Shown: positions 25,446 through 35,348 of the stretch, piece after piece
Position numbering within the stretch: position 1 is the first letter of the stretch
Layout of the letters: every line of letters begins with the position of its first letter
Assembly: GCA_017461725.1 (NCBI GenBank)
Contig: JAFTXG010000018.1
Coordinates: 93,488 to 157,487, forward strand
Length of the DNA: 64,000 bases
Origin: Lachnospiraceae bacterium
GTDB taxonomy: Bacteria > Bacillota > Clostridia > Lachnospirales > Lachnospiraceae
Direction of reading: 5' to 3'
Program-made: the position numbers and the translations under genes
Notes under the pieces: model-generated
Told to the model about the DNA's origin: nothing
Databases searched by the model: none
What the model saw: the letters and a program-made list of their open reading frames with translations, nothing else

Positions 25446-25459
25446 GCAACCAAAAGTTG
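25446..25459 (+). repeat. attL core
   Basis: GCAACCAAAAGTTG, identical to 35335-35348 and in the same orientation. It lies 80 bp beyond the 3' end of the integrase gene, as expected for the left junction of a tyrosine-recombinase element. Confidence 0.75.
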
Positions 25460-25539: not shown

Positions 25540-26709
25540 TTACAGATTCAGTACGTTTTTTGTGAAGTTGTCCATCCTAGCGGCGCTGTCCTGTTTCATG
25601 CGTTCTGTGAAGTGCCCATACCGATCAAGGGTGAAGGCAGCAGAAGCGTGGCCGAGGTTTCCTTGTAGGGTTTTGATATCGTCACCGGCGCGGATGGCGT
25701 TGACGGCATATGTGTGGCGCAGATCATGAAAGCGGACGTTTTCAATGCCGGCAGCAGTCAGCAGGTCCTTAAACTCCCGCTGGACACGCCAGCGATCAAC
25801 AAGACTGCCATCCTCCAGCGTGAACACAAGATTATGCGGATTATTCCAAATCTGGCCAGCTTTAAGCCTCATTTCGATTTGTCTGCGTCGCTGAGCTTTC
25901 AGGGCGAGAATGACGGAGGTGGCAACAGTAAGTGTTCTGGTTTTGTTATTTTTCGGAAGCATAAAGATATCGTCATCATCTCGATCAAGATCAGCAAGCT
26001 GTTTGCTAACGAATATGGTGCCTTTATTCAGATTTGCGCTATCCCAGGTTAATCCGAGCAATTCCCCCAGACGCAGGCCGGTAAATAAAGCCACTACGAT
26101 CAAATGTTCATAAGGGTTACCCTTAGCGGTTCGCAGTAAAGCTGTTATTTCTTCGTCGGTGAGAGGGTGCATCTCAGGTTGATTAACCTTGGGTAGTGCA
26201 CAGCCTACCGCCGGATTACGTGGGATATATTCGTTCTGTACTGCTTTTTCCAGCGCCATGCGGAGAACTTTGTAGGCGAGATGGATAGAAGCTGCGGAAA
26301 GCTCATCCAGACCGTTTACAAAGAATTGCACATCGTGTGGCCGAAGATCTGACAGCTTTATTGCTCCCAGAGCTGGCTTAATATGCTTCCTGATATTTGA
26401 TTGGTATATGCGTACAGTGTTTTTCTTTCGATTGCCCAGATATTCCGCTGCCCAGGTATCGAGCCACTGGCCAACGGTCATTTTCTGGGGTGGGATATAG
26501 ATGCCGGTATTCACGGCAACTGCTGCCGCCTGCATTTTCTCCCGGACTTCCTTTTGGGTCTTGCCGGTAAATGACTGTTGGATCTGTTTGCCGGTTCCTG
26601 GATCACGACCGGTGGTGATTCGCGCCTCCCAGTATATGTACTGTTTGCCTTTCCGGGTAACGGTTTTCTTCCGGATGGTACCGGAGCCTTGCGCTGCTCT
26701 TTTTGCCAT
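25540..26709 (-). CDS. int: tyrosine recombinase (integrase)
   Basis: 389-aa site-specific recombinase. N-terminal arm-binding domain: GSGTIRKKTVTRKGKQYIYW up to about residue 60. SAM-like core-binding domain from TVGQWLDTWAAEYLGN. Catalytic domain with Arg in FTGLRLGELLGL, His-Arg in FHDLRHTYAVN, a second His in LGHASAAFT and the nucleophile Tyr in LDRYGHFTERM. The start at 26709 has AAGGAG 7 nt upstream; an in-frame ATG at 26802, also with GGAGG, would add 31 residues. It acts on the 14-bp repeats flanking the element. Confidence 0.95.
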   Translation of the reverse strand: MAKRAAQGSGTIRKKTVTRKGKQYIYWEARITTGRDPGTGKQIQQSFTGKTQKEVREKMQAAAVAVNTGIYIPPQKMTVGQWLDTWAAEYLGNRKKNTVRIYQSNIRKHIKPALGAIKLSDLRPHDVQFFVNGLDELSAASIHLAYKVLRMALEKAVQNEYIPRNPAVGCALPKVNQPEMHPLTDEEITALLRTAKGNPYEHLIVVALFTGLRLGELLGLTWDSANLNKGTIFVSKQLADLDRDDDDIFMLPKNNKTRTLTVATSVILALKAQRRRQIEMRLKAGQIWNNPHNLVFTLEDGSLVDRWRVQREFKDLLTAAGIENVRFHDLRHTYAVNAIRAGDDIKTLQGNLGHASAAFTLDRYGHFTERMKQDSAARMDNFTKNVLNL

Positions 26710-27054
26710 GGCGTACTCCTTTCGTTTGACACCATCGCCTAAATGTGGTAGTATAAAAGGGCGCAGTGGTGCCTTGTTTGGTAGACTGGTATTGTTGTGC
26801 ATCCTCTCCTCCGGTGTTGGTAGCGCCGGGGGAGATTTTCTATGTCCATCAGGACAGGGCTATTTGCCCCGCTGGTGGATTTTTTGTTGTTGGTAGAGAT
26901 TTCCTCCGCCAAAGCAGAAAATGGCGGCATCTTTTCACCAAATCGGGCGAAAAGCCAGAACCTAACTCAGTAACGTTTCGTTATCGAGCTTCTTCCTTCT
27001 GATGGTCTGTACCTTGGGGTACGGTGCGCTCTGAACTTATGGAGTAACACTTTG
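26710..27054. other. integrase upstream region, no confident gene
   Basis: About 345 bp between int and the repressor gene. It contains a GGAGGAGAGG-ATG at 26802 in frame with int, and several hairpins towards 27000 (AGTAACG/CGTTA-type around 26970 and GTACC-TTGG-GGTAC around 27010). Short minus-strand frames are open but show no recognisable protein. It may carry arm-type integrase sites or int leader structure. Confidence 0.4.
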
Positions 27055-29898: not shown

Positions 29899-30219
29899 AT
29901 GAGTGAAATCACAGAAATATTGGAACGTATACACGATGCGAAAAGCAGACTTAATGAACATCAGGAGATCGTGAGGGTCTGCACGGAATGCAATTCTGTG
30001 CGGGTGTCAATATGCATTTCGTGGCCGGAAGCCGACGCAAGGCGCCAGGAAATGCGACTTCAGACGCGCGAGTTACGCCCCGCAAAAGGACTGACAAAGG
30101 CTCTGATAGGTGTCCTGGTGAAGGGCTATGAACATCAGATTGGAGAATTAAACAAGGAGTTGGATGATGCAATCGCTGATCTTGTAGAGCTGCGGAGTGC
30201 GAGAAAGGAGCAACCATGA
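29899..30219 (+). CDS. small coiled-coil hypothetical protein
   Basis: 106 aa, not recognised. Helical ends (ITEILERIHDAKSRLNEHQE and LNKELDDAIADLVELRSARK) surround a middle with Cys residues (VCTECNSVRVSIC). The ATG at 29899 has AAGGGAGTAAGGG upstream. It starts 5 bases after the ATPase stop, and its own stop overlaps the next ATG. Confidence 0.65.
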   Translation: MSEITEILERIHDAKSRLNEHQEIVRVCTECNSVRVSICISWPEADARRQEMRLQTRELRPAKGLTKALIGVLVKGYEHQIGELNKELDDAIADLVELRSARKEQP

Positions 30220-30437
30220 AAATCTTAACCCAAGGTAGAACCGCAATGGTCGAGCTGCCAAAAGAAATCTGGGCAACAAGTTACGGCACCGAAGGTCGCG
30301 CCGGTGTACTTAGCTCCAGCTACATATCGCCGTGTCTGGGTGATTATGACAGCATTGGCAGAGCAAAGGCGGTTGTGAAAGAGCTCTTCGATTATCACCG
30401 GAACGGCAAAAACAGCTATATCATGCCGGAGCAGTAA
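30216..30437 (+). CDS. small hypothetical protein of phage/island type
   Basis: 73 aa, not assigned. It starts MKILTQGRTAMVELPKEIW and ends FDYHRNGKNSYIMPEQ. The segment LGDYDSIGRAKAVVKELFDY resembles small phage-island proteins. AAGGAG before an ATG that overlaps the previous stop. The structured element begins directly after its TAA. Confidence 0.6.
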   Translation: MKILTQGRTAMVELPKEIWATSYGTEGRAGVLSSSYISPCLGDYDSIGRAKAVVKELFDYHRNGKNSYIMPEQ

Positions 30438-30517
30438 AAGAAAAAAAGCCCTCAGGAAGCTGCAACTTCGAGAGGGCCAAGCAGCCGGAGCTGCTACCAA
30501 ATGGCAATTATAGGGTA
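30438..30517 (+). ncRNA. structured RNA element, copy 1 (CTGCAA loop)
   Basis: Directly after a TAA and an A/G-rich spacer: GCCCTC (30448-30453), GAAG, loop CTGCAA (30460-30465), CTTC, GAGGGC (30472-30477), then CAAGCA, and a second perfect hairpin AGCAGC-CGGA-GCTGCT (30480-30495). Copy 2 at 32536 has the same order, the same loop and different but still paired stems. It may be transcribed as part of the mRNA; function unknown. Confidence 0.65.
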
Positions 30518-30588
30518 ACACATTCTCCGGGGAAATGTAAAGGACTTTTCGCTAAAAAATAAGCGAAACCCTAAGAGGAGGATTAGAA

Positions 30589-30783
30589 ATGCAGAGAATC
30601 AGAGAACTCATGAAGGAACTGATCCGGGAGCTACTCTTGATGGATATTGAGACAATCGAGAGGATAAGCGGCAAATGGACGGAAGGAATGCGAAAAGAAG
30701 GTATTCCGGATAACTTGATTGCGTTTTGCAATAAACTCGCAGAGGCAGTGATCCAGCGGAAGAAAGAGAGGTCATGTGTATGA
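30589..30783 (+). CDS. small helical hypothetical protein
   Basis: 64 aa, not recognised. Amphipathic helices rich in Glu, Arg and Leu (MQRIRELMKELIRELLLMD). GAGGAGG lies 6-7 nt before the ATG. Its stop overlaps the start of the ImmA/IrrE-family gene (ATGA), so the two are probably co-translated. It could be a partner of that protease. Confidence 0.6.
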   Translation: MQRIRELMKELIRELLLMDIETIERISGKWTEGMRKEGIPDNLIAFCNKLAEAVIQRKKERSCV

Positions 30784-31199
30784 GGGATAATAAAGAACTA
30801 CTTGCCAAGCTGATCAACATGACCGGAAGTATAGATGGGGACATTGTTTTTATGCCGATGATCAGTAAATGCAAGGGATTGATGGTAGGTGAACAGGTGG
30901 AGTATACGCCAGAAGAGATGGAACGGCTTATGTACATAGCGGAGCAACAGGGGATAAAGGTTAGATTTAAGTCGTTTGAGGCTTTTGATGGAAGGATGGC
31001 GGTTGTCAAGGATGAGGTCCGTATAGGAATCAGAGCGGGAATGAGTTTTGACGAATATGTGTACACCCTTGCACATGAGCTTGCGCACTGGTTTTTGCAT
31101 TTCGATAAGGGCGATACAATAACCAGTGACAACCACCAGGAATATGAGGAGCAGGCAGACAGGGCGGCGAAAATGCTATTGCTGGCTTTGTCCGCATAA
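30780..31199 (+). CDS. ImmA/IrrE family metallopeptidase
   Basis: 139 aa. Zinc-protease motif HELAH at residues 99-103 with a downstream Glu in EYEEQADRAAKMLL. In ICEBs1 and related elements ImmA cleaves the CI-like repressor (ImmR) to trigger excision; this element has a CI-like repressor without its own peptidase domain, which fits. The ATG at 30780 overlaps the upstream stop; an ATG at 30774 is too close to the GAGAGG site. Confidence 0.87.
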   Translation: MRDNKELLAKLINMTGSIDGDIVFMPMISKCKGLMVGEQVEYTPEEMERLMYIAEQQGIKVRFKSFEAFDGRMAVVKDEVRIGIRAGMSFDEYVYTLAHELAHWFLHFDKGDTITSDNHQEYEEQADRAAKMLLLALSA

Positions 31200-31344
31200 A
31201 TAACGGCACCTATGGGCCGGGGAATGGTGTTGGCGCACCGGAACCCGGCTGCACACGGGCCGAGGAATAGTGAGATGGACGGATGTTATTAAATGTTATG
31301 GTTATGAATTTGTTGACGCGATAACGCGCGAAGGGAGGTGTCTT

Positions 31345-31488
31345 ATGATCAAGCTCACCGTACACTATGACCATCCGGAGCAACTGCAGATGCTGATCCA
31401 GCTCCTGGGTGATCGGGTGTTGAGCTGCCGGAGAGCAAAACAACAGACCGGATCACATAAGAGGGCATATATTGTTTTACGTGATTAA
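31345..31488 (+). CDS. very small hypothetical protein
   Basis: 47 aa, not recognised. It starts MIKLTVHYDHPEQLQMLIQL and ends SHKRAYIVLRD, suggesting a beta-alpha-beta unit. GGAGGTG precedes the ATG at 31345. Its stop is directly followed by the structured region at 31493. Confidence 0.55.
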   Translation: MIKLTVHYDHPEQLQMLIQLLGDRVLSCRRAKQQTGSHKRAYIVLRD

Positions 31489-31492
31489 GACA

Positions 31493-31615
31493 CACTAAAG
31501 GAGCAATGGCCCAACCCAAAGGGGGGTCAGGTATCGCTCCTTTAGTGAAGCCATTCTCCTCCCAACCCAAAAGGATCACGAGGGAAAAGGATGGTTCTCA
31601 TTCGGATTATACAAT
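31493..31615 (+). ncRNA. tandem structured region with repeated CCCAACCCAAA loops
   Basis: CACTAAAGGAGC (31493-31504) and GCTCCTTTAGTG (31536-31547) form a perfect 12-bp stem around an inner hairpin whose loop contains CCCAACCCAAA (31510-31520). A second, shorter structure follows with the same 11-mer at 31561-31571 closed by TCCT/AGGA and GCCAT/ATGGT. It holds no ORF. It may include a terminator for the upstream genes. Confidence 0.5.
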
Positions 31616-31699
31616 AAGGCGCACAGAAAAGCAAGGGCGGTTTATCATGTAATTGATAGGCTTGCCCTGTTTCTGGGTTGTGGGCTATATTCCTTTAGT

Positions 31700-31912
31700 T
31701 CAGTCCTGATCAGGAAGGTATTCCAGAAAGTCTCCTGGCTGACACCTTAGTAATTCGCAGACTGTAGAGATATTTTCCCATGAGACCAGCTCGTTATTTC
31801 GAAATTTTTGTATTGTGGCTTCTCCGAATAACCTTTCTTTTCTTAGGCGGTACGTTGAGTAACCGGCATCTTTGAGCGCAGAAACAATATTGATTTTGTA
31901 TTGAATTGGCAT
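31700..31912 (-). CDS. Cro/CI-type helix-turn-helix regulator
   Basis: 70 aa, one HTH domain of the YozG-like type (YKINIVSALKDAGYSTYRLR, then WENISTVCELLRCQPGDFLE). AGGAAG lies before the ATG at 31912. It is divergent from the promoter of the structured leader at 32098. GTGTATA/TATACAC half-sites between them suggest it controls that promoter and its own. Confidence 0.82.
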   Translation of the reverse strand: MPIQYKINIVSALKDAGYSTYRLRKERLFGEATIQKFRNNELVSWENISTVCELLRCQPGDFLEYLPDQD

Positions 31913-32009
31913 GGATTGCACTTCCTTTCTGTGGGAAATAAATAGGACAGTTAAAATTGTGAATACCTCTTCCATTATAAGCATTATATCGCAGATATGC
32001 ACAAAAAAA

Positions 32010-32090
32010 CAAGTGTATAAAATCGCCAAAATATACACTGTAAGTTTGTGCATAATGTCAATGGACATACACTAGTATCTGGTGTATAAT
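32010..32090 (+). promoter_or_regulatory. promoter and operators for the structured leader
   Basis: TGGACA (32062-32067), 17 bp, TATAAT (32085-32090). Upstream and overlapping are AGTGTATA/TATACACT (about 32010-32040) and ATACAC/GTGTAT (about 32067-32087) inverted repeats, likely sites for the divergent HTH regulator. Transcription should start near 32097. Confidence 0.72.
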
Positions 32091-32097
32091 GTGGTCA

Positions 32098-32259
32098 TAA
32101 GATAACAGAGAGGGACAGCCGGAAAAAGCGGTGAAAGGCCGTAAATGCCGAAAGCGTCCGATACCGAAAACCATATCCCTGTGAGAGGTAGAAAGCCTCA
32201 ATAGGCAGGAAGATGATTCCGGGGCGGTTCCTCTCCACAATGAAAAGGAGATAGAAAAC
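32098..32259 (+). ncRNA. about 160-nt structured 5' leader
   Basis: It begins at the predicted transcription start and runs to the next ribosome site. Closing stem GAGAGG (32108-32113) with CCTCTC (32230-32235), then CCGGAA (32119-32124) with TTCCGG (32217-32222). Inside are GCGG/CCGT (32128-32131 with 32139-32142) and GAGG/CCTC (32185-32188 with 32196-32199), with GAAA-rich joining regions. It holds no ORF. It looks like a cis-regulatory RNA or stable small RNA; no known class was recognised. Confidence 0.55.
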
Positions 32260-32535
32260 ATGACAGAGAGACAGATTGAAAATCGCATCAAAAAGCTGCA
32301 GGCCATTGAGGTGCAGCAGAAAGAGCTGGAGGCGCAGGCTGAATTGTTGAGAGCTGAGTTGAAAGCAGACCTGGAAGACAAGGGGCTGGACGAGCTGAAG
32401 ACATCGAATTTTATTATCCGTTGGAAAGAGATCGTCAGTGAACGGCTGGATGGAAAGGCGCTGAAAACGGCATTACCAGAGATATACCGTCAGTATTGCC
32501 GGCAGGCGAGCAACAAAAGATTTACGATTGCATAA
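32260..32535 (+). CDS. small coiled-coil protein of phage type
   Basis: 91 aa. The N-terminal half is a coiled coil (IENRIKKLQAIEVQQKELEA); the C-terminal half (SNFIIRWKEIVSERLDGKAL, then YRQYCRQASNKRFTI) matches a small protein type common in Firmicutes prophages and islands, loosely like Gp157. AAGGAG precedes the ATG. It is the first gene after the structured leader, and RNA copy 2 starts right after its TAA. Confidence 0.72.
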   Translation: MTERQIENRIKKLQAIEVQQKELEAQAELLRAELKADLEDKGLDELKTSNFIIRWKEIVSERLDGKALKTALPEIYRQYCRQASNKRFTIA

Positions 32536-32608
32536 AGAAAATGCCCTTGCCAGAGCTGCAACTCTGACAGGGGCAAGCAACCCGACAACCTGTTAAAATT
32601 GGGGTATG
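32536..32608 (+). ncRNA. structured RNA element, copy 2 (CTGCAA loop)
   Basis: TGCCCTTG (32542-32549), CAGAG, loop CTGCAA (32556-32561), CTCTG, CAGGGGCA (32568-32575), then AGCAACCCG. It has the same layout as copy 1 (TAA, A/G spacer, stem, loop, CAAGCA, later an AATT...GGGTA block). The stem sequences differ in both arms, keeping pairing. Confidence 0.65.
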
Positions 32609-32647
32609 AACGGAGTATATCACACCTGCTGCCTTGTTGTAAAGGTA

Positions 32648-32732
32648 ATGTCGCAATTCCAGGAGCGGTGCAAGTATCTGCTTTCGGCAAGCGATTTGAG
32701 CCGGGACTGGTACAATAAAAATATTGCGACAT
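32648..32732. repeat. 10-bp inverted repeat in the 32.6-kb spacer
   Basis: ATGTCGCAAT (32648-32657) and ATTGCGACAT (32723-32732), 65 bp apart. The region from 32609 to 32822 contains only weak short frames. It may be an operator pair, a hairpin or a replication/transfer site. Confidence 0.45.
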
Positions 32733-32822
32733 CGCAGAAGAATGTAAACATTGTACTCTCCTGTTCCACTTCTGAATTAGTGATGAAGTGTAGGAAATGA
32801 AGCAAAAGGAAGGGAGGAAAAC

Positions 32823-32984: not shown

Positions 32985-33029
32985 CAATTAATGGGGTATG
33001 ATAGAAGAAAAAATGGAGGTTTTTTTGTG

Positions 33030-33509
33030 ATGGGAGACGTGAATTTGATACTTAGAGGTGCGCGTGGTGGTGCACATGCTTATCGGATATTATCGGAGAA
33101 ATTCGAGCAGGCAAGAGAATGCATGATGAACCGTGAAGCATTCCAAATGGAAGACATTGAGTTGGCATTCCCAGTAGTAATGACACAAACATTTTCTTGC
33201 GAGCTTTATCTCAAGGCGTTGTTGACTAAGAATAATATTAGTTACAGGCGCACACATGATTTGTATGAACTGTTCAACTGTTTGGACGAAAACACACGGG
33301 CTAAAATTCTTCATTACTATAAAGAAATATGCGGTACAGACAATGATTTTCTTGTAAGGCTCCAAGAAAATAATATAGAGTTTTCAAAGTGGCGATATTA
33401 TTTTGAAATTGACCTAAATAAGGAACCGGGCGGATTTCATGTCGTGGATGTTCCTTTTTTAGATGATTTTCTTGTGAGTCTGGAAAAAACCATCTTGGAA
33501 ATACTATGA
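33030..33509 (+). CDS. HEPN-like domain protein
   Basis: 159 aa, helical. Its blocks match HEPN proteins: MTQTFSCELYLKALLTKNNI, then the typical RTHDLYELFNCLDE. A possible Rx4-6H RNase motif is R-AKIL-H in NTRAKILHYYKE, but the polar residue usual after Arg is absent, so catalysis is uncertain. GGAGG precedes GTG 33027 / ATG 33030. No nucleotidyltransferase partner is adjacent. HEPN proteins in mobile elements often serve in toxin-antitoxin or anti-phage defence. Confidence 0.6.
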   Translation: MGDVNLILRGARGGAHAYRILSEKFEQARECMMNREAFQMEDIELAFPVVMTQTFSCELYLKALLTKNNISYRRTHDLYELFNCLDENTRAKILHYYKEICGTDNDFLVRLQENNIEFSKWRYYFEIDLNKEPGGFHVVDVPFLDDFLVSLEKTILEIL

Positions 33510-33575: not shown

Positions 33576-33782
33576 ATGGCGAAAGGGAAATATGAACATT
33601 GGTTAACGCCAGAAGGCTTACTGAAGATTGAGGGTTGGGCAAGAGATGGCCTTACAGACGAATAGCTTGCAAAAAATATGGGAATCGGCAGCAGAACTCT
33701 CTACGAATGGAAAGAGAAGTATCCGCAGATTTCGCAGTCCCTAAAAAAGGTAAGGATATTGCGGGTGGGTGAGGTTATATAA
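33576..33782 (+). pseudogene. decayed phage-type HTH gene (terminase small subunit-like start)
   Basis: The start MAKGKYEHWLTPEGLLKIEG, then WARDGLTDE, is followed by an in-frame TAG at 33663-33665, where related proteins usually have Gln. The same frame continues LAKNMGIGSRTLYEWKEKYP and QISQSLKK, then loses similarity at an A6 run; one extra base would restore a KKGK continuation. This is the N-terminal HTH of phage small-terminase-type proteins. GAGGTGA lies before the ATG. The remainder of the protein is missing. Confidence 0.7.
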
Positions 33783-34234
33783 CTTATAAGAAGCGAGTTC
33801 GCTCAGTTTCGAAGCGGCGAGGAAGCGGCGAGAAACGTCAATATTTCGATACTGCGCAGCAACCCAAATTTTACATCGAACAGCGAGGGAACAGCGAGAA
33901 AGCTCATCGAACAACGGGCGAACTACGGGAAAATTGGATATTGAAGCACGAAGGAAGCCCGAGAAATGGTTTGCGCTCCTTGCGTATTCGAGGAAACTGC
34001 GGTACAATATTCTCAGAGCAAACAGAATACAGAAGTACCCCAGGCAGAAGGAAACTCTGCTTCTTGCATGGAAGCTTTTGTGTATGATGGCGCGGGAATA
34101 GGATGATCCAGAAATGGATCTTCTTATTTCTGCGTTTTTTATTTGAGATAATGCGAGCGCTCCAAAACTACGAATATCATGTGAACGCTCGCATAATCCG
34201 AACGTTCCAAAACCGACGAATAGGAGTTGACACC
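33783..34234. other. non-coding stretch with tandem 11-mers
   Basis: 450 bp. GAAGCGGCGAG occurs twice in tandem at 33811-33832, and the related GAACAGCGAGG/GAACAGCGAGA at 33878-33899. A plus-strand frame is open from 33790 to about 34100 but has no early start codon or recognisable protein. Close to the sigma gene are ATGCGAGCG/CGCTCGCAT arms (34151-34159 with 34185-34193) and a direct repeat of CGYTCCAAAAC (34158 and 34203). Confidence 0.45.
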
Positions 34235-35176
34235 ATGACCAACGAGCAACTTGCAGCCAGCATTCAAACTGGAGAATATCCGTCCGGCAATATGCTTCTT
34301 CTGTATGAGCAGATGAAAGGATTTATTTTTCATCACGCCAAGAATTACCAGGGTTATGCAGAGTATGCTGATCTTCTACAGGAGGGATTCCTGGCGCTGT
34401 ATGATGCGGTAGCCGGTTATGATCCAGAGAAGGGCAGCTTCTCCACGTATGCCGGTTGGTGGATCAAAAATCGCCTGAGGCGGTACGTGTTCGGGGATAA
34501 TGCAGCTATCCGGGTACCGGAGCACATGCATGCCCGTATCATGGAATACAAGCGGTTCGTGGAGAATTTCAGCCAGAAGCATGACCGGGAGCCGTCTGAT
34601 CAGGAAGCTATGAGGGCGTTAGATCTGAGTGGTCGCCAGCTGGAGGAGATCAAGCGCGCCTGCTGCCTGATTACGATATCGAGTCTGGACAGGCCTATCC
34701 TGGAAGATGGTAACAAGGCTATATCTCTGTTGGACAGCATAGCAGATGAGCATAACAACATCGAGGCAGCGGAGGAGCGAATCTATCTGGAGGAGCGTAG
34801 CCGGGCAGTGTGGGCAGCAGTTGACAGTCTGGATCCTGATCATGCGGAGGTGATCCGGGAGCGGTACGCGGAGGGAATGACTCTGACAGAGATTGCGAAT
34901 TGTCGTGGTTGCTCGTTCCAAAATGTCCGGAGCATGGAACACCAGGCGCTGCGTCGGTTAAGGACGGGAAAACTCCGGAAGATGCTAAAGCCATTTGCGG
35001 AGGATCTGATCTATAGCATGGGACTGCGGAGCGGAGGCGTTGGCCAATTTAACCGGACTCTTACCAGTTCCACGGAATGGGCAGTGTTGACCATGGAAGA
35101 ACGTCGGGAACGTGAATGGCAGTTGTTCATGGAGAAGGAGTTGGAACAGTATAAAATAATGGGATATGAGACATAA
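34235..35176 (+). CDS. sigma-70 family-like factor
   Basis: 313 aa. Region 2 is clear (LLQEGFLALYDAVAGYDPEK, then STYAGWWIKNRLRRYV), followed by a region 3-like segment and a region 4 HTH (LTEIANCRGCSFQNVRSMEH). A roughly 60-residue extra C-terminus carries no recognised domain. AGGAG precedes the ATG at 34235. It is the last gene of the element. Such factors may direct late or host-takeover transcription; target promoters are unknown. CGYTCCAAAAC direct repeats upstream could be its own control sites. Confidence 0.85.
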   Translation: MTNEQLAASIQTGEYPSGNMLLLYEQMKGFIFHHAKNYQGYAEYADLLQEGFLALYDAVAGYDPEKGSFSTYAGWWIKNRLRRYVFGDNAAIRVPEHMHARIMEYKRFVENFSQKHDREPSDQEAMRALDLSGRQLEEIKRACCLITISSLDRPILEDGNKAISLLDSIADEHNNIEAAEERIYLEERSRAVWAAVDSLDPDHAEVIRERYAEGMTLTEIANCRGCSFQNVRSMEHQALRRLRTGKLRKMLKPFAEDLIYSMGLRSGGVGQFNRTLTSSTEWAVLTMEERREREWQLFMEKELEQYKIMGYET

Positions 35177-35334: not shown

Positions 35335-35348
35335 GCAACCAAAAGTTG
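35335..35348 (+). repeat. attR core
   Basis: GCAACCAAAAGTTG, identical to attL. Here the flanking bases extend it to the perfect palindrome CGCAAC-CAAAA-GTTGCG. It lies in the 5' leader of the next host gene. Confidence 0.75.

What the first reader, a model, noticed from the sequence alone, without database searches (positions are those of the whole stretch)
30438..32608. Two paralogous structured RNA elements with an invariant CTGCAA loop and compensated stems
Copy 1 (30448-30477) is GCCCTC-AG-GAAG-CTGCAA-CTTC-GA-GAGGGC; copy 2 (32542-32575) is TGCCCTTG-C-CAGAG-CTGCAA-CTCTG-A-CAGGGGCA. Stem sequences differ but stay paired, the hexaloop is identical, CAAGCA follows both, both start 5-10 bases after a TAA through an A/G-rich spacer, and an AATT..GGGTA block follows at a similar distance. 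Covariation with a fixed loop suggests selection on RNA structure or protein binding, perhaps an antitermination, processing or packaging signal. I know of no named class with this consensus, but could not search for one.
Basis: partly seen in the sequence, partly recalled or inferred. Interest (0 to 1): 0.75.

Follow-up and report, generated by a model that had tools for sequence, protein, structure and literature searches.

The report
Antisense RNA switches in mobile elements
Two hairpins in an integrase-bearing stretch of a bacterial genome match a family of predicted small antisense RNA genes, read from the opposite strand, that likely switch off translation of the next gene.

Summary
On the minus strand each is an intrinsic terminator, and ~70 nt upstream of its end lies a promoter-like site (TTTACA/TTGACA, 17-18 nt, TGnTATAAT). 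The unit is a predicted ~70-nt RNA gene, antisense to its operon, filling the gap between gene A's stop and gene B's start. The CTGCAA loop is not invariant (5 of 64). Rfam has no match. Relatives: 31 of 397 genomes of the same family, 4 more outside it among 391 of the class; 29 of 36 fetched neighbourhoods hold integrase-like sequence against 2 of 20 control regions. In the sense mRNA the antisense-binding site pairs with a C-rich arm (0 of 20000 permutations as good), and that arm pairs with the member's own Shine-Dalgarno region (3 of 20000). I infer a translational off-switch: the antisense RNA takes the first segment, freeing the arm to cover gene B's ribosome site. This works like I-complex plasmid control, but on other genes, integrases included. 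In this window copy 1 has a poor promoter and copy 2 a weak switch hairpin. No transcript was seen.

The parts
30439..30505 (-). Copy 1: predicted small antisense RNA (67 nt), 5' hairpin AGCAGC-TCCG-GCTGCT then terminator
   Evidence: R2 match 69.4 bits; length; fold -30.8 kcal/mol, z -3.63. Start site inferred.
30448..30477 (-). Copy 1 hairpin = intrinsic terminator stem-loop (T-run at 30441-30447 on minus)
   Evidence: R1 match 56.2 bits
30507..30541 (-). Copy 1 promoter region: TTTACA (30541-30536), family-position -10 is poor (TACCCT 30517-30512), a TATAAT lies 5 nt further (30512-30507) with the spacing then too long
   Evidence: score 9 of 13, not above chance by itself
30216..30437 (+). 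Gene A of copy 1 (73 aa), no family found
30485..30490 (+). Segment 1 of copy 1: mRNA loop sequence CCGGAG, complementary to 30525-30530
30522..30530 (+). Segment 2 of copy 1: AUUCUCCGG, pairs in the predicted fold with the Shine-Dalgarno stretch, and can pair with segment 1
30577..30583 (+). Shine-Dalgarno stretch GGAGGAU of gene B of copy 1, covered by segment 2 in the predicted fold
30589..30783 (+). Gene B of copy 1 (64 aa), no family above cut-off
32535..32607 (-). Copy 2: predicted small antisense RNA (73 nt)
   Evidence: R2 match 111.2 bits; length; fold of 70 nt -29.1 kcal/mol, z -3.38. Start site inferred.
32543..32574 (-). Copy 2 hairpin = intrinsic terminator stem-loop (T-run at 32535-32542 on minus)
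   Evidence: R1 match 73 bits; terminator scan
32614..32643 (-). Copy 2 promoter: TTTACA (32643-32638), 18 nt, TG, TATACT (32619-32614)
   Evidence: 10 of 12 matches plus TG
32260..32535 (+). Gene A of copy 2 (91 aa), like the C-terminus of RecE-like exonucleases and Gp157-like proteins
   Evidence: PHROG 6244 E 2.8e-14, PHROG 434 E 1.8e-10, Pfam Sipho_Gp157 below cut-off
32648..32800 (+). Possible gene B of copy 2 (50 aa, ATG); doubtful, its ribosome site is weak
   Evidence: (inside the ORF listed from 32606)
25540..26802 (-). Tyrosine integrase of the element that holds both copies
   Evidence: Pfam PF00589 E 9.1e-24

Best explanation
Each hairpin is the terminator of a predicted ~70-nt antisense RNA gene on the minus strand, which likely shuts off translation of the next plus-strand gene (gene B) by a three-segment RNA switch. 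Shown by sequence and statistics for the family: a promoter-like site and a terminator enclosing a conserved ~70-nt unit; a place between gene A's stop and gene B's start; homologues in integrase-rich regions; segment 1 (inside the antisense-binding site) is complementary to segment 2, and segment 2 is also complementary to the member's own Shine-Dalgarno region. Inferred: without antisense RNA, segment 1 (as a hairpin arm, or as a loop making a pseudoknot in copy-1-type members) holds segment 2 and gene B is translated; when the antisense RNA binds segment 1, segment 2 is freed, covers the Shine-Dalgarno region and gene B is off. The number of copies of the element would then set the repression.
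For: Promoter: 17 of 24 fetched hairpin-only matches score at least 10 of 13 on the minus-strand flank; shuffles 3.7%, sense strand 0 of 24, other flank 1 of 48. Terminator: T-run in 63 of 64, stem covariation. Place: gene A stop at the unit's edge in 45 of 64, gene B start within 60 nt of the -35 in 49 of 64, by a mechanical ORF rule. Segment 1:2 complementarity: 0 of 5000 permutations (59 members), 0 of 20000 (27 strong non-redundant members). Segment 2:Shine-Dalgarno: 3 of 20000, while the two control pairings are not special (1669 and 15294 of 20000). Segment 1:2 is more stable in sense than in antisense RNA in 26 of 40 (p 0.004), and blocking the antisense site lowers predicted openness of the ribosome site from 0.50 to 0.41 (p 0.0017). 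Copy 1's own mRNA fold shows segment 2 on the Shine-Dalgarno stretch.
Against: No transcript, start site or translation effect was seen. 7 of 24 flanks are not above chance, copy 1 among them; only 39 of 63 units have both boxes good. Copy 2's segment 1:2 pairing is weak (-6.7 against a mean of -12.8 kcal/mol), its gene B doubtful, and it was dropped. The openness effect is modest and 4 of 40 go the other way. Permutations do not correct for kinship. The conserved terminator loop is not explained by a purely cis role.
Confidence: 0.6

Rival explanations
1. A small RNA gene as described, but acting in trans through its conserved terminator loop on other mRNAs or on other elements; the antisense position is incidental.
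For: The terminator loop is the best kept unpaired part (TTGCCG in 29 of 64), and 9 of the loci in A4 carry two units.
Against: The site co-varies with the neighbouring arm and that arm with the neighbouring ribosome site, which a trans role does not need. No trans targets were searched.
Confidence: 0.15
2. Promoter and terminator serve as a roadblock or insulator: antisense transcription itself lowers read-through from gene A to gene B, or the terminator stops leftward transcription; the RNA product does nothing.
For: The unit lies exactly between two genes of one direction. Tn916 has a terminator said to act as an insulator (PMC11658703, start of abstract only).
Against: Does not explain the segment pairings or their bias to sense RNA.
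Confidence: 0.1
3. The repeat around the -10 is a DNA-level feature: a repressor's operator, or a folded single-strand promoter that primes copying after transfer.
For: The repeat flanks the -10 and its arms change together; most fetched regions look mobile.
Against: Two units in one element carry different repeats (window, L165), unlike operators of one repressor; stability is skewed to sense RNA; the arm also matches the ribosome site. Single-strand priming was not tested.
Confidence: 0.08
4. One reading: a plus-strand hairpin acting as a protein-binding, antitermination, processing or packaging signal.
For: The stem co-varies and follows stop codons.
Against: T-run and promoter on the other strand explain stem, spacer and downstream block together.
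Confidence: 0.05

Closest known systems
I-complex plasmid (IncI-alpha, IncB, IncK) RNAI antisense control of rep translation
   Same: Short stem-loop antisense RNA from the leader of the controlled gene; a leader hairpin whose loop can pair with a stretch next to the ribosome site (seen here in copy-1-type members). A review table says the antisense RNA of IncI/IncB prevents an activator pseudoknot (PMC5415839, passage); PMC10724649 (passages) says RNAI acts through stem-loop I.
   Different: Other host phylum, no sequence relation shown, controlled genes are mostly not rep genes (2 AAA_25 helicases of 49 gene B), and no leader peptide was shown; gene A ends just before the unit instead.
pT181/pIP501 countertranscribed RNA
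   Same: Antisense RNA choosing between alternative leader structures (named in PMC5415839, passage).
   Different: There the outcome is transcription attenuation; here I saw by eye no T-run after the sense-strand structures, and the arm targets the ribosome site.
Phage lambda OOP RNA
   Same: Short antisense RNA from an early operon of a temperate phage (recalled; PMC5869508 seen as listing and start of abstract).
   Different: OOP overlaps the end of cII (recalled); this unit ends just after gene A's stop codon and lies on gene B's leader.
Rfam GP20-a RNA (RF02991)
   Same: A structured RNA on the same contig as one family member (L157).
   Different: Different sequence and structure, about 2.5 kb away.

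Membership tests
Intrinsic (Rho-independent) terminator | GC-rich stem-loop followed by a T-run on the same strand | tested here: met
   At least 5 T in the last 8 nt in 63 of 64; copy 2 found by the scan.
Cis-encoded antisense RNA gene | Promoter on the opposite strand of the target leader | tested here: met
   17 of 24 flanks, by consensus score only; copy 1 of the window does not reach it.
Cis-encoded antisense RNA gene | A transcript is made | not testable with these tools
   No expression data at hand.
I-complex RNAI control | Antisense-bound leader loop complementary to a stretch by the ribosome site (pseudoknot) | tested here: inconclusive
   Present by eye and script in copy-1-type members (4-8 nt match in the 8 with a TCCG hairpin and CCGG-like spacer; GAGCCG in L257); in a fixed loop this is conservation, not covariation.
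I-complex RNAI control | Controlled gene is the plasmid rep gene | tested here: not met
   Of 49 gene B proteins 3 are integrases, 2 AAA_25 helicases, most without family.
I-complex RNAI control | Translated leader peptide that opens the leader | not tested
   Gene A ends at the unit's edge in 45 of 64; coupling was not examined.
Any Rfam 15 family | Covariance model match at the gathering score | tested here: not met
   No match on the units in the window, in 6 loci to E 10, and in 8 further loci.
Type I toxin-antitoxin | Controlled gene is a very short hydrophobic peptide | tested here: not met
   Only L263 (32 aa) and L268 (27 aa) of the 49 automatic gene B calls look so, by eye.

The most novel reading that the evidence does not exclude
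A portable antisense-RNA translation switch that phages and integrative elements of Clostridia place before unrelated genes, from integrases to helicases to cargo. Each copy re-evolves its anti-ribosome-site arm to fit its gene, while the shared terminator loop lets copies and resident elements sense one another: a dosage or superinfection gauge for integrated elements.
Probability: 0.25. Interest if true: 0.82.

Novelty: new variant of a known kind. Interest (0 to 1): 0.62.

Why it matters
Antisense control of translation is best known from plasmid replication. A family that carries the same logic to integrases, helicases and cargo genes of phages and integrative elements in Lachnospiraceae would add an RNA layer to how such elements stay quiet, with one consensus to search and many natural variants to test. 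It would also account for two such units recurring within one locus.

Tried and rejected
The plus-strand reading of the hairpin (antitermination, packaging, REP-like) was dropped once the reverse strand gave promoter and terminator. A spacing pattern matched in 18 of 120 genomes, its control pattern too; by eye only two of the 21 places were true, the window's copy 2 and L140. R1 matched 79 of 299 genomes at E 0.01, but of the 30 loci fetched about a dozen look by eye like ordinary terminators, some beside T-box-like leaders, so I used R2 for the counts.

Limits of the tests. R2's 22 seeds were picked by eye for a promoter, so the promoter counts are not independent; one search is, as R1 holds no promoter, but 10 of its 24 sequences are R1 seeds. 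One search took the 24 distinct fetched matches of 40 bits or more; matches without a fetched locus were left out. In one search copy 2's start was one base off and the segment 1:Shine-Dalgarno control was spoiled by failed duplexes; replace it. Copy 1 is not, where a -10 of at least 4 of 6 was asked for. In one search the 64 distinct units gave 27 used, 8 redundant and 29 dropped: 21 as under 50 bits (one of them, L239, has 59.9 bits but lacks the promoter at a contig end), 5 without a gene B call, 3 with a Shine-Dalgarno window under 8 nt (copy 2 among these). In one search two of the 36 regions supplied integrase queries themselves (27 of the other 34 match), and the 20 control regions were picked by me on larger contigs of 13 of the same genomes, so part of the contrast may come from contig size.

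Searches of phage and plasmid records with the hairpin regions and with two proteins gave no useful named relative. Print: the searches listed no description of this family.

Full report
What was claimed. Two paralogous hairpins with an invariant CTGCAA loop, compensated stems and a shared downstream block, read on the plus strand as an RNA signal.

Observation. Both hairpins are present. The loop with three pairs is not unusual in the window (6 matches against 5.45 in shuffles). A covariance model from 10 hairpins, the two here included (R1), recovers relatives in viral contigs and genomes. In the window it finds the two copies and the palindromic reverse of copy 2. Rfam 15 has nothing over them (to E 10 on six loci; on eight more).

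Change of strand. Reading the relatives side by side, the A-rich stretch before the hairpin becomes a T-run after it on the other strand, and the block after the hairpin becomes a -10 box with TG before it and a -35 box 17-18 nt away. To test this without circularity I scored the 110-nt flanks of the 24 distinct fetched matches (40 bits or more) of the hairpin-only model, which holds no promoter: 17 of 24 reach 10 of 13, against 3.7% of dinucleotide shuffles, 0 of 24 on the sense strand of the same flanks and 1 of 48 readings of the other flank; six score 9 and one 8, which is no more than chance. A separate consensus scan lists copy 2's promoter and terminator, not copy 1's.

Family. A second model (R2) covers -35 to T-run with structure only on the terminator. 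At E 0.001 it matches 31 of 397 genomes of the window's family, the own genome included, and 6 of 391 drawn from the class, of which 2 are again in that family. The 10 named loci are titled Lachnospiraceae (5), Oscillospiraceae (2), Clostridiales, Clostridium sp. and Bacteroidaceae (1 each), all MAGs. In all, 75 matches, 64 distinct. The hairpin is 92.7% paired with changes on both sides at 12 of 12 pairs; for hairpin and promoter repeat together, 4 of 5 measures exceed all 500 shuffles and the fifth is reached by 2 of 500, and all slid versions score lower, though the alignment was fitted to the terminator.

Setting. By a mechanical ORF rule, gene A's stop lies at the unit's edge in 45 of 64 and gene B starts within 60 nt of the -35 in 49 of 64; predicted RNA 58-85 nt, median 73. 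Gene A recurs: 14 of 46 match PHROG 6244 and 434 (the latter RecE-like exonuclease), 5 of 46 HIRAN; 46 of the 51 gene A calls were scanned. Gene B varies: of 49 scanned, 3 integrases, 2 AAA_25 helicases, 2 SprT-like, and one each of DnaJ, DUF5839 and Lar. Integrase-like sequence is found in 29 of 36 fetched regions and 2 of 20 control regions (with the limits told under tried and rejected), and R2 finds nothing in those 20. In the window the two copies lie with an integrase, HTH genes and an AAA_25 ATPase between two copies of GCAACCAAAAGTTG about 9.9 kb apart, a candidate att pair (not tested further).

Switch. The promoter spacer is complementary to the segment just after the -10: 0 of 5000 permutations among 59 members, 0 of 20000 among 40. 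In the mRNA these are segment 2, next to gene B's ribosome site, and segment 1, mostly inside the antisense-binding site. Segment 2 also pairs with the member's own Shine-Dalgarno window: with 27 strong, non-redundant members, 3 of 20000 permutations, while the two control pairings are not special (1669 and 15294 of 20000). L274 shows it plainly: GGCGGTTA, TAACCGCC, GGCGGTTA in series. Segment 1:2 is more stable in sense than in antisense RNA (26 of 40, p 0.004), so selection seems to act on the mRNA. Predicted openness of the ribosome site is 0.50 free, 0.41 with the antisense site blocked and 0.42 with that site shuffled (40 members; p 0.0017 and 0.0047); 19 of 40 fall by more than 0.1 on blocking and 4 rise. 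The effect is modest.

Two forms. Copy-2-type members use a hairpin arm (such as GGGGTATGCAGG with CCTGCTGCC). Copy-1-type members carry a UNCG-loop hairpin in the antisense RNA (AGCAGC-TCCG-GCTGCT in copy 1; GTAGC-TCCG-GCTAC; ATAGC-TCCG-GCTAT), and the mRNA loop CCGGA can pair with UCCGG before the ribosome site. In copy 1 the 150-nt mRNA fold puts AUUCUCC (30522-30528) on GGAGGAU (30577-30583), the ribosome site of the 64-aa gene, while CUCCGG (30525-30530) is also complementary to CCGGAG (30485-30490).

State of the two copies. Copy 1: good RNA fold and switch, poor -10 at the family position. Copy 2: good promoter, RNA and terminator, weak segment 1:2 pairing (-6.7 kcal/mol) and a doubtful gene B. 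Both may work, or be partly decayed.

Mechanism. Most likely a cis-antisense translational off-switch (inferred). It works like I-complex plasmid RNAI control but is not filed there: the controlled genes differ and no sequence relation was shown. Novelty is a new variant of a known kind; the searches listed no paper that describes it, with the limit that subscription papers and supplements were not read.

Noticed in passing
L157 5033-5215 (-): Two tandem GP20-a RNA matches (RF02991), one above (51.2 bits) and one just below (45) the gathering score of 47.2, on a contig that also carries a family member.
   Followed up: no
L165 8389-9627 (-): A reverse-transcriptase-like ORF in a phage contig with two family members, perhaps of a diversity-generating retroelement (by eye).
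   Followed up: no
window 25446-25459 and 35335-35348: GCAACCAAAAGTTG on both sides of ~9.9 kb with the integrase near one end: candidate attachment sites.
   Followed up: partly
window 33577-33662: Start of a small helix-turn-helix-like ORF cut by an in-frame TAG (by eye).
   Followed up: no
window 32991-33509: HEPN-domain protein next to copy 2 (Pfam E 5.7e-6).
   Followed up: no
window 31489-31548: Inverted repeat CACTAAAGGAGC ... GCTCCTTTAGTG around a ~30-nt centre, between the two copies (by eye).
   Followed up: no
window 34103-35176: Sigma-70-like protein (regions 2, 3, 4) inside the candidate element.
   Followed up: no
L263 7943-8038 (-), L268 8178-8258 (+): Two gene B calls are short hydrophobic peptides alike in sequence (FILGVLFTVN), reminiscent of type I toxins (by eye).
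   Followed up: no
L243 14302-14433 (+): Azaaromatic (yjdF) riboswitch match near a family member.
   Followed up: no
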